Of a stretch of 27,011 nt of DNA, positions 20,061 to 22,451 are shown piece after piece. The position numbers and the translations under genes were made by a program. The notes under the pieces were generated by a model, which was given only the letters and a program-made list of their open reading frames with translations, was not told where the DNA came from and ran no database searches. The stretch's first letter is position 1, and the number at the start of each line of letters is the position of its first letter. The stretch is taken from positions 1 through 27,011 of IMG/VR virus record IMGVR_UViG_3300021976_000065. One strand, 5' to 3'. This stretch comes from a virus.

Positions 20061-22451
20061 ATGACGTCTCTGTGGGTACCCACTTCCGAGGAGATCCGCC
20101 AGATGGCGGAGCTCGGGATGATCGATGAGATCCACGAGGCGACCGAGATCCTGTACCACCTCCAGGCTCTCGAAGAGGACGAGTGGGTGGCGCAGCCGAA
20201 GCAGGCGCTGGCCACCTCGCTGGCCGCCCGTGCGGTCGAGACGCTGTACGGCGGAGCGGCTGGGGGCGGCAAATCGGAGTGGCTCCTGCACTACTTGCTG
20301 AACCAGATGCTGGCGCATCCGTTCAACCGCGGTGTGGTCTTCCGCCGGTTCTTCCCGAGCCTTGAGCGGACCCTGATCGACCGGGCCAAGCAGATCTACC
20401 CGAAGCACGGCGGCCGGTACAACGAGGTCAAGCACACCTGGCGATTCCCGAACGGGTCCGTGCTGGAGATGGGGTCGCTGCCGACGGCGGCCGACGTGAC
20501 CAATTACCAGGGCACCGAGTACGGCGTGATCGCCTTCGAGGAGATTACCGAGTTCGAGGAGAAGCAGCTGGACGCAATGGTCGTCCGGCTGCGTCCACCC
20601 GGCCCGGGCATCCGGTCGCACCTGATCGCCACCTGTAACCCCGGCGGACGCGGACACGTCTGGGTGAAGCGGCGCTGGGTTAAGCCGAAGCCCGACGACT
20701 ACAACGGCAGCGCGACGCCGCTCCCCTACGAGGTGTGGACGCCGTCGGCCAAGCCGGAGAACCCCGAGCCGGGCAGCCGGGTCTTCGTGCCGGCCACGCT
20801 GGAGGACAACCCGATCCTGGAGATGCGCGACCCGACGTACCGCAACAAGATCCGGACCCTGGCCAACTCCGACAAGGCGCTGGCCCTGGCGATGGAACAC
20901 GGCGACTGGGACGCGATCGACGCAGTGCAGGGTGCGCTGTGGCGCCAGTCCGACCTCGACGGCGGCCGGGTGTCGCGGGAGTGGTTCCGGCTGAACGTCA
21001 TTCCGCAGCGCAGGGTGCTCACGGTCGACCCGTCAGACGGCAACGAGGACGGGCAGGGCGACGAGTATGGCGTAGCGGTGGTCACGCTCGGGATGGACGG
21101 GATTGGGTACGTCGAGCTGACCGACGGCTGGAGGGCCTCACCGAAGCAGATGGCGAAGAAAACCGTTCAGCTGTCCCGGGATCTCGACTGCGACGAGATC
21201 GTGGTGGAGCGCAACAACGGCGGCAAGTGGGTGAAGACCGTCATCCAGGGCGAGAACAAGTACGCGGTGGTGCGGACCGTTTGGGCCTCGGAGGGCAAGA
21301 TCACCCGTGCCCGGCCGGTTGCCGCTCTGTTCGAGCTGGACGAGGACCTGGCCGACGAAGGCATGCCGTACCGGATGCGGATGGTCGGCACCGCGCACGA
21401 GCAGTTCGAGGACGAGGCTTGTCTGGCGCCTGGAACACAGGTAGCTACGGAGCACGGTGCCGTGTCGATCGAAGACGTTCCGGCTGGTGCCCGTGTCTGG
21501 ACACGTGCGGGCCTCCGCAGGGTGCTTTGGTCGGGGCAGACTTCTCATTCTTCGGACACCTTGAATCTGATTACTGCGGAGGGGTCCATCACCTGCACGC
21601 CGGATCACCCCGTGTTTGTACGGGGGCGCGGCTTCATCCCGTCTAAGAGTGTTCCTCTTCAAGCTATGATGCTGGTATGCCCGCCAGAACATGTCCGGAC
21701 TGCGGCAGCAAGCTGCGTGCACCGAGGTCCGCTCGCTGTCGATCCTGCGCTCAGCGTCTCCGGTGGTCTGTCCCTGATGACCCGCGCAGAGTCCGTCCAT
21801 CCGTGGAGTTCGCAGGCAGGATGTACTACCTGCAAGACCACGGGTACTACGCGTCTTCCCGGCGACCAGGGCATCCCGGGGGGACGCTACTGCACCGCGA
21901 TGTTTGGGAAGCCACTAACGGCCCGATCCCTGACGGTTGGCATGTTCACCACATCAACCACAGCAAGGTGGACAACCGGCTGGAGAACCTGGCTGCTCTC
22001 ACTCCGAAAGAGCATCACGACCAGCACCCAGAAAAGATCGTTGCCTTTCTCGCGCAAACTACAGAGGAGCGCAGAGAACGCGCGCTGCGAATGTGGGCTG
22101 CGCGAGAGCCGCGGCAGCTTCTTTGCCAAGAATGCAGCGCCAGCTACAGCACAACCAGCATGCGCCCATCCCAGTACTGCTCCATACGGTGTTGCGACAG
22201 AGCAATGGGTCGCCGTCGAACGGATCGAGCAAGGGCCGCGCGGTCCGGTGTACAACCTGATGGTCGAGGGTGAGCCGGAGTTCTTCGCCAATGGTTTGCT
22301 GGTGCACAACTGCTCTTTCACCGGCGCTCCCGGCGAGGTCTCCCCGAACCGGCTGGATGCTGTCGTCTGGGGTGGAACACACCTGATGCTGAAGCCCCGC
22401 GCCGTCAACAACGACAAGTACACCGACAACCGGCTGGCGAACCGGCGCTAA
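20061..22451 (+). CDS. terL: Terminase large subunit, intein-containing precursor
   Basis: The precursor has 796 aa. Removing the 297-aa intein leaves 499 aa, normal for TerL. The ATPase has Walker A GGAAGGGKS (64-72) and Walker B VIAFEE (156-161). The nuclease acids are D323 (LTVDPSDG), E383 (IVVERNNGG) and D766 (SPNRLDAVVW). The precursor residues FEDEA join CSFTGAPGE after splicing, so the intein sits in the nuclease domain and blocks activity until removed. ATG 20061 has no Shine-Dalgarno and lies 6 nt after TATCAT, so it may be leaderless. ATG 20103, with GAGGAG upstream, is an alternative start. TerL packages DNA into the prohead with TerS and portal. Confidence 0.93.
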   Translation: MTSLWVPTSEEIRQMAELGMIDEIHEATEILYHLQALEEDEWVAQPKQALATSLAARAVETLYGGAAGGGKSEWLLHYLLNQMLAHPFNRGVVFRRFFPSLERTLIDRAKQIYPKHGGRYNEVKHTWRFPNGSVLEMGSLPTAADVTNYQGTEYGVIAFEEITEFEEKQLDAMVVRLRPPGPGIRSHLIATCNPGGRGHVWVKRRWVKPKPDDYNGSATPLPYEVWTPSAKPENPEPGSRVFVPATLEDNPILEMRDPTYRNKIRTLANSDKALALAMEHGDWDAIDAVQGALWRQSDLDGGRVSREWFRLNVIPQRRVLTVDPSDGNEDGQGDEYGVAVVTLGMDGIGYVELTDGWRASPKQMAKKTVQLSRDLDCDEIVVERNNGGKWVKTVIQGENKYAVVRTVWASEGKITRARPVAALFELDEDLADEGMPYRMRMVGTAHEQFEDEACLAPGTQVATEHGAVSIEDVPAGARVWTRAGLRRVLWSGQTSHSSDTLNLITAEGSITCTPDHPVFVRGRGFIPSKSVPLQAMMLVCPPEHVRTAAASCVHRGPLAVDPALSVSGGLSLMTRAESVHPWSSQAGCTTCKTTGTTRLPGDQGIPGGRYCTAMFGKPLTARSLTVGMFTTSTTARWTTGWRTWLLSLRKSITTSTQKRSLPFSRKLQRSAENARCECGLRESRGSFFAKNAAPATAQPACAHPSTAPYGVATEQWVAVERIEQGPRGPVYNLMVEGEPEFFANGLLVHNCSFTGAPGEVSPNRLDAVVWGGTHLMLKPRAVNNDKYTDNRLANRR
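21665..21676 (+). promoter_or_regulatory. Putative leaderless promoter inside the intein DNA
   Basis: TATGAT (21665-21670) is a good -10, followed by GCTGGT and directly by the HNH ATG at 21677. This 6-nt spacing equals that of the leaderless promoter at 13264-13275. No clear -35 is seen. Confidence 0.45.
21677..22273 (+). CDS. HNH homing endonuclease nested out of frame within the terL intein
   Basis: The protein has 198 aa, encoded in the -1 frame relative to terL. An N-terminal Cys4 zinc finger (CPDCGSKLRA, CRSCAQR; C6, C9, C21, C24) is followed by a basic region and the HNH core WHVHHINHSKVDNRLENLAA (88-107) with a trailing EHH. A second Cys cluster (C150, C153, C168, C172) closes the protein with CSIRCCDRAMGRRR. 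Its frame is blocked upstream by a TAA just before 21647, so it starts independently at ATG 21677. The last 20 or so codons overlap the intein's C-terminal splicing block. It would cut intein-lacking terL alleles to spread the element. Confidence 0.88.
   Translation: MPARTCPDCGSKLRAPRSARCRSCAQRLRWSVPDDPRRVRPSVEFAGRMYYLQDHGYYASSRRPGHPGGTLLHRDVWEATNGPIPDGWHVHHINHSKVDNRLENLAALTPKEHHDQHPEKIVAFLAQTTEERRERALRMWAAREPRQLLCQECSASYSTTSMRPSQYCSIRCCDRAMGRRRTDRARAARSGVQPDGRG

What the first reader, a model, noticed from the sequence alone, without database searches (positions are those of the whole stretch)
21420..22310. HNH homing endonuclease gene nested in a different reading frame inside an intein
Seen: the terL intein has complete splicing blocks, and a complete 198-aa HNH protein is encoded in the -1 frame within it. 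The HNH ATG begins at the third base of the codon for intein residue 85, just after the N-terminal splicing segment (PLQAMMLV). The HNH frame ends inside block F coding, so the two functions share bases. The intein frame stays open across the whole insert as an unstructured Ser/Thr/Arg-rich linker of about 180 residues. Known: intein endonucleases (LAGLIDADG or HNH) are normally in frame with the splicing domain. Inference: the endonuclease entered a mini-intein and is expressed on its own, so it need not be co-translated with a late packaging protein.
Basis: partly seen in the sequence, partly recalled or inferred. Interest (0 to 1): 0.9.

Follow-up and report, generated by a model that had tools for sequence, protein, structure and literature searches.

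The report
Endonuclease gene hidden inside phage intein
A self-splicing insert in a phage DNA-packaging gene hides a complete DNA-cutting enzyme gene in another reading frame of the same bases; the same layout occurs in over a hundred other phage inteins, so it is a real and widespread kind of mobile element and not a sequencing error.

Summary
Confirmed. The window's terL gene holds a 297-aa intein (21420-22310) with intact splicing blocks. A separate 198-aa HNH_3 gene (21677-22273) lies inside it in the -1 frame and overlaps block F. It is not an indel artefact. I found 118 distinct inteins with the same nested layout in IMG/VR and GenBank phages (Tetrasphaera TJE1, Rhodobacteraceae LS06, Acinetobacter Highwayman), plus more in bacterial and archaeal MAGs, at 30-69% GC, and no in-frame HNH in 160 loci. 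Across 70 loci the intein frame has 0 stops over the HNH, against 153 expected after synonymous-codon shuffling. Substitutions in the overlap fall on HNH wobble positions. HNH starts lie about 260 nt after intein Cys1, and 40% have a Shine-Dalgarno (11% in controls). Some mini-inteins keep a zinc-finger fossil of the HNH in the same frame. Free-standing and split-intein ("fractured") relatives also exist. Most likely each is a mobile intein whose homing endonuclease is a nested, independently translated gene; homing and expression are inferred. The nearest published case, the out-of-frame HNH "ShiLan domain", is not an intein. An unread 2025 preprint on "non-canonical" actinophage inteins may already report the basic layout. 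New variant of a known kind.

The parts
20061..21419 (+). TerL N-extein (exact start uncertain)
   Evidence: phrog_979 E 9e-56, Terminase_3
21420..22310 (+). intein, 297 aa, Cys1 to His296-Asn297, +1 Cys
   Evidence: Hint_2, Intein_splicing, TIGR01443; own N- and C-domain profiles 78 and 49 bits; Foldseek best hits gp41-1 6riz/6qaz, TM 0.86 by target
21420..21680 (+). N-terminal splicing domain, intein residues 1-87
   Evidence: pLDDT 92-98
21681..22199 (+). intein-frame linker over the HNH gene, residues 88-260, kept open but disordered
   Evidence: pLDDT mostly under 50; open against shuffle expectation
22200..22310 (+). C-terminal splicing domain (blocks F and G), residues 261-297
   Evidence: pLDDT 96-98; TIGR01443
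21677..22273 (+). nested HNH endonuclease gene, -1 frame relative to the intein, 198 aa plus stop
   Evidence: HNH_3 E 1.2e-14; phrog_15471 E 7.8e-22; AlphaFold2 mean pLDDT 89.7; Foldseek best hit I-HmuI
21692..21748 (+). HNH N-terminal zinc ribbon (CPDC...CRSC)
   Evidence: shared with L012, L014, L016, L045
21887..22018 (+). HNH_3 catalytic core, HNH residues 71-114
   Evidence: Pfam HNH_3; H91, H92, N100, N104, H113 invariant
22124..22192 (+). HNH C-terminal zinc finger (C150, C153, C168, C172)
   Evidence: invariant cysteines
22200..22273 (+). bases shared by the HNH tail and the intein C-terminal splicing domain
   Evidence: coordinates of the two ORFs
22311..22451 (+). TerL C-extein (CSFTGAPGEVSPNRLDAVVW...) and stop
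   Evidence: joined exteins align in one piece with 229 inteinless phage TerLs

Best explanation
It is a mobile intein in the phage large terminase with a two-gene design. One frame encodes a splicing-competent Hint domain in two halves (residues 1-87 and 261-297) joined by a disordered linker; after translation the intein excises and restores TerL. The bases of the linker also encode, in the -1 frame, an independent HNH_3 zinc-finger homing endonuclease. It is translated by internal initiation just after the N-terminal splicing domain, the usual endonuclease insertion point of inteins. The endonuclease would cut intein-free terL alleles so that the intein plus its gene is copied in. Shown by sequence: both ORFs, both folds (predicted), selection on both frames, recurrence, empty sites, and decay fossils. 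Inferred: protein splicing, HNH expression in this phage, cleavage specificity and homing.
For: Architecture found independently by HNH query (71 of 80 IMG/VR loci nested) and by intein query (54 of 80 nested, 0 in-frame HNH); 127 inteins, 118 distinct. Selection to keep the intein frame open: 0 stops against 153 expected; free-standing HNH relatives carry 1-12 stops there. Purifying selection in the HNH frame: overlap substitutions at HNH codon positions 1/2/3 are 65/53/204; in the intein N-domain, in the intein frame, 40/28/133. Internal initiation: 40% of 112 starts have a strong SD against 11% in controls, p 3e-15, at a median 260 nt from Cys1. Decay fossils in L092, L094, L101, L107. Intein and HNH similarity covary given TerL similarity. 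TerL intein (L030) and portal intein (L046) are 54% alike with HNHs 40% alike. Empty site in 229 TerLs. Models.
Against: The window's own HNH ATG has no Shine-Dalgarno. No splicing, expression or cleavage was tested. The window is a 27-kb metagenomic record with no isolate. Covariation of intein and HNH is significant but weak (partial r 0.20), so the two parts may also exchange.
Confidence: 0.85

Rival explanations
1. Sequencing or assembly indels shifted an ordinary in-frame HNH intein out of frame twice.
For: The window is a single metagenomic record.
Against: The same -1 offset is found in isolate genomes and in more than 100 independent contigs; the overlap evolves as two overlapping coding frames.
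Confidence: 0.01
2. The HNH is made by -1 ribosomal frameshifting as a TerL-intein-HNH fusion and not by internal initiation.
For: The HNH is in the -1 frame in nearly all loci; the window start lacks an SD.
Against: Start codons lie at a narrow distance from Cys1 and 40% carry SDs. The -1 frame bias is explained by stops: the other frame would meet a mean of about 7-36 stops in shuffles of the -1-frame loci. A clade in the other frame also exists (L033, L048, L077). No slippery heptamer was seen by eye at the window start.
Confidence: 0.08
3. The HNH is a domesticated packaging cofactor of the terminase, like HK97 gp74, and not a homing enzyme.
For: It is almost always in or beside terL; HK97 HNH aids terminase in vitro (cited in PMC10448857).
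Against: Sporadic; lost repeatedly leaving fossils; present in portal genes and at several terL sites; nearest solved structure is the homing enzyme I-HmuI.
Confidence: 0.1
4. The intein-frame linker is an accidental high-GC open frame, and only one of the two products is real.
For: The window overlap is 62% GC.
Against: Loci at 30-35% GC keep the frame open over the HNH (L055, L026, L042); 0 against 153 stops; both domains are predicted to fold.
Confidence: 0.01
5. A group I intron carrying the HNH sits inside the intein.
For: HNH_3 enzymes are common in phage introns.
Against: No Rfam match in the window; the intein frame runs through without a stop, so RNA splicing is not needed.
Confidence: 0.01

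Closest known systems
ShiLan domain and Pacc40 insertion (Arsenault, Gosselin and Gogarten 2025, PMC11855218)
   Same: HNH with flanking zinc fingers encoded out of frame inside a phage gene whose own frame stays open; no RBS found there and internal initiation proposed; for Pacc40 a free-standing HNH relative lies next to the intact gene in other phages.
   Different: They lie in DNA methylases, have no intein splicing motifs, and the in-frame peptide is thought to stay in the protein. Here the insert is a full intein that should splice out, in TerL or portal.
Gosselin, Arsenault and Gogarten 2025 preprint 'Actinobacteriophage Inteins: ... Non-Canonical Architecture' (10.1101/2025.01.02.630785)
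   Same: Cited by the ShiLan paper for overlapping reading frames in actinobacteriophages; may describe out-of-frame endonucleases in inteins.
   Different: Could not be read here; by its title limited to actinobacteriophages, whereas this family spans phages of many phyla and archaea.
Fractured genes and split inteins (gp41-1, NrdJ-1; Dassa et al. 2009, not readable here)
   Same: The intein fold and profile are closest to gp41-1 and NrdJ-1 among named split inteins; an endonuclease gene lies between intein halves. The same HNH family occurs between split TerL inteins.
   Different: Here the intein frame is continuous and overlaps the endonuclease gene.
Canonical full-length inteins, including mycobacteriophage TerL inteins (Kelley et al. 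2016, PMC5050341)
   Same: TerL inteins with endonucleases at the usual insertion point.
   Different: There the endonuclease domain is in the intein frame; here it is a separate overlapping gene.
I-HmuI-type HNH homing endonucleases
   Same: Nearest solved structure by profile (E 1.2e-5) and by fold.
   Different: I-HmuI is carried by a group I intron, not an intein (general knowledge).

Membership tests
class 1 intein | Cys/Ser at position 1, block B TxxH, C-terminal HN, C/S/T at +1 | tested here: met
   C1, TPDH, HN|C in the window; all 75 first-set inteins have Cys1, and every one with a resolved C-terminus ends in N before C/S/T
class 1 intein | Hint fold | tested here: met
   AlphaFold2 pLDDT 92-98 in both halves and Foldseek to gp41-1, TM 0.86 by target
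class 1 intein | protein splicing activity | not testable with these tools
   needs expression
HNH homing endonuclease (HNH_3) | HNH motif and domain above the curated cut-off | tested here: met
   HNH_3 54 bits, cut-off 24.8; catalytic His/Asn invariant
HNH homing endonuclease (HNH_3) | cuts the empty allele and spreads its element | not testable with these tools
   only indirect: empty sites and patchy distribution
canonical endonuclease-containing intein | endonuclease domain in frame with the splicing domain | tested here: not met
   HNH in the -1 frame in the window; 0 in-frame HNH in 160 loci
ShiLan-type out-of-frame HNH insertion | no splicing element; in-frame peptide retained | tested here: not met
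   complete splicing blocks and Hint fold
fractured-gene split intein | intein frame interrupted, halves on separate ORFs | tested here: not met
   window intein frame continuous; split relatives exist
group I intron | conserved RNA core | tested here: not met
   no Rfam match at gathering score
HK97 gp74-like packaging HNH | required for terminase function | not testable with these tools
   needs genetics

The most novel reading that the evidence does not exclude
Nested-HNH TerL inteins are a widespread third intein architecture beside full-length and mini-inteins, and the evolutionary bridge to naturally split inteins: a nested gene frees the linker frame of protein constraint, so a stop in it yields two intein halves with a stand-alone endonuclease between them.
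Probability: 0.35. Interest if true: 0.88.

Novelty: new variant of a known kind. Interest (0 to 1): 0.75.

Why it matters
Inteins are described as protein-splicing domains with the homing endonuclease fused in frame. Here splicing and mobility are two genes written over one another, so each can be expressed, lost or exchanged on its own. The family offers over 100 natural examples, including decay intermediates and split forms. That makes it possible to test how endonucleases enter inteins, why they always sit at one point of the Hint fold, and how split inteins such as gp41-1, a workhorse of protein engineering, arose. It also exposes a blind spot: in TJE1, LS06 and Highwayman the nested endonuclease is not annotated; only terL is.

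Tried and rejected
Single-protein IMG/VR scans with the window HNH and intein found nothing; alignments were needed. Indel artefact, chance high-GC frame and intron were rejected (see rivals). An in-frame HNH version was looked for in 160 loci and not found. A genome scan with alignment A1 failed for lack of conserved columns; the tighter A3 worked. Literature: Gorbalenya 1998 'Non-canonical inteins', Dassa 2009 and the 2025 preprint are not held, so prior art could not be fully excluded; phrase searches for out-of-frame endonucleases in inteins found only the ShiLan paper and a genome announcement with a similar methylase. L179 is not firmly split, since a single-base frame break could be an error (it was labelled split in the tree).

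Full report
Observation. The window is a complete 27,011-bp IMG/VR virus record. Its terL gene contains an intein at 21420-22310: Cys1, block B TPDH, C-terminal HN and +1 Cys, read without a stop. It matches Hint_2, Intein_splicing and the TIGR01443 C-terminal intein model. Inside it, in the -1 frame, lies a 198-aa HNH_3 protein at 21677-22273. The HNH stop falls inside block F, so 22200-22273 serves both the HNH tail and the C-terminal splicing domain. Joined exteins align in one piece with 229 inteinless phage TerLs, so the site is a true insertion.

Both products look real. AlphaFold2 on an alignment of 27 family inteins gives pLDDT 92-98 for residues 1-87 and 261-297 and mostly under 50 between; the best fold matches are the gp41-1 inteins. 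The HNH is modelled at mean pLDDT 89.7, with I-HmuI as best match. So the folded HNH and the unfolded linker are the same bases in two frames.

It is a family. tblastn with the HNH found the same layout in Tetrasphaera phage TJE1, Rhodobacteraceae phage LS06-2018-MD07 and Acinetobacter phage Highwayman (39% GC locus), where only terL is annotated. An HNH-alignment scan of IMG/VR returned 80 loci: 71 nested (66 in the -1 frame, 5 in the other), 2 split, 7 free-standing. A second scan used only the intein splicing domains and so was not biased to the HNH. Of its 80 loci, 54 carry a nested -1 HNH, 4 carry an HNH fossil, 17 are mini-inteins, 4 are other in-frame inserts, 1 is unclassified, and none has an in-frame HNH. 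The two sets share some contigs; together there are 127 nested inteins, 118 distinct. Related MAG loci show it in contigs binned as Methanomethylophilaceae archaea, Bacteroides, Acidobacteria, Selenomonadaceae, Hymenobacter and Patescibacteria. Hosts are TerL families in nearly all of 68 N-exteins scanned, and Phage_portal_3 in two.

Selection on both frames. For 70 -1-frame loci, shuffling synonymous codons of the HNH (same protein, same codon usage) predicts 153 stops in the intein frame; there are none. Free-standing relatives have 1-12 stops each in that frame. The third frame would contain a mean of about 7-36 stops in shuffles of the -1-frame loci, which explains why the -1 frame is preferred; yet one clade (L033, L048, L077) uses the other frame with 0 stops. 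In seven closely related pairs, overlap substitutions are 65, 53 and 204 at HNH codon positions 1, 2 and 3, and the HNH-frame protein is more conserved than the intein-frame linker. In the N-terminal splicing domain the intein frame shows the usual 40, 28, 133. So the HNH is maintained as a protein, the linker only as an open frame.

Expression. HNH starts lie at a median 260 nt from Cys1. In 112 distinct cases 40% of the 5'-most starts have a strong Shine-Dalgarno (for example LS06 CGGAGGGAATCACATG, L016 TAGGAGGTAATGAAATATG) against 11% of control start-like codons, p 3e-15. The loci are related, so the p value is nominal. The window start has no SD, so its translation is inferred by homology; its conserved N-terminal zinc ribbon supports the start.

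Life cycle. Mini-inteins L092, L094, L101 and L107 keep the HNH C-terminal zinc finger in the same out-of-frame register, as expected if the HNH is lost by deletions that keep the intein frame. Intein and HNH similarity covary beyond TerL similarity (partial r 0.20, 0 of 300 permutations), and L030 (TerL) and L046 (portal) share related inteins and HNHs in unrelated genes. The window's intein is closest to L012, inserted at a different TerL site. The HNH tree mixes nested, free-standing and split forms, with at least 5 changes of the nested state forced by supported branches (quick method, many weak branches). In Lactobacillus phage CL2 and five or six other loci the same HNH family sits between split TerL intein halves, and in most the C-intein keeps the nested frame relation to the HNH. 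This suggests, but does not prove, that nested and split forms interconvert.

Known or new. The closest read paper describes an out-of-frame HNH in phage methylases, explicitly not an intein, and cites an unread preprint and Gorbalenya 1998 for overlapping frames in actinobacteriophages. The basic idea may therefore be in print for actinophage inteins. What appears new here is a large TerL family with splicing domains, dual-frame selection, internal SDs, decay fossils and a link to split inteins. Homing, splicing and expression remain untested.

Noticed in passing
L004:455-2771 (Lactobacillus phage CL2); also L067, L068, L185, L186, L188, L192: Unannotated split TerL: an N-intein ends the terL CDS, then a separate HNH gene, then a short ORF with the C-intein and the TerL C-terminus; probably trans-splicing.
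   Followed up: partly
L092:1453-1890, L094:3001-3444, L101:2450-2920, L107:2625-3092: Mini-inteins that keep an out-of-frame zinc-finger fossil of the lost HNH.
   Followed up: yes
L033, L034, L048, L056, L077: A second group of TerL inteins carries the HNH in the other alternative frame, with 0 stops where 3-11 are expected by shuffling.
   Followed up: partly
L016:2005-5022 and L098:1516-4248: Single terminase ORFs with two inteins; in L016 (same contig as L121) both carry nested HNHs, in L098 one is nested and one is a mini-intein.
   Followed up: no
L046:1627-4818, L057:619-3126: The same nested-HNH intein in phage portal genes (Phage_portal_3).
   Followed up: partly
L113:1-3345: Long ORF with two Hint regions, an in-frame DUF559/Vsr-like nuclease and an ADP-ribosyltransferase-like domain.
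   Followed up: no
window:4731-6365 (- strand): 544-aa ORF opposite the replication genes with no PHROG match.
   Followed up: no
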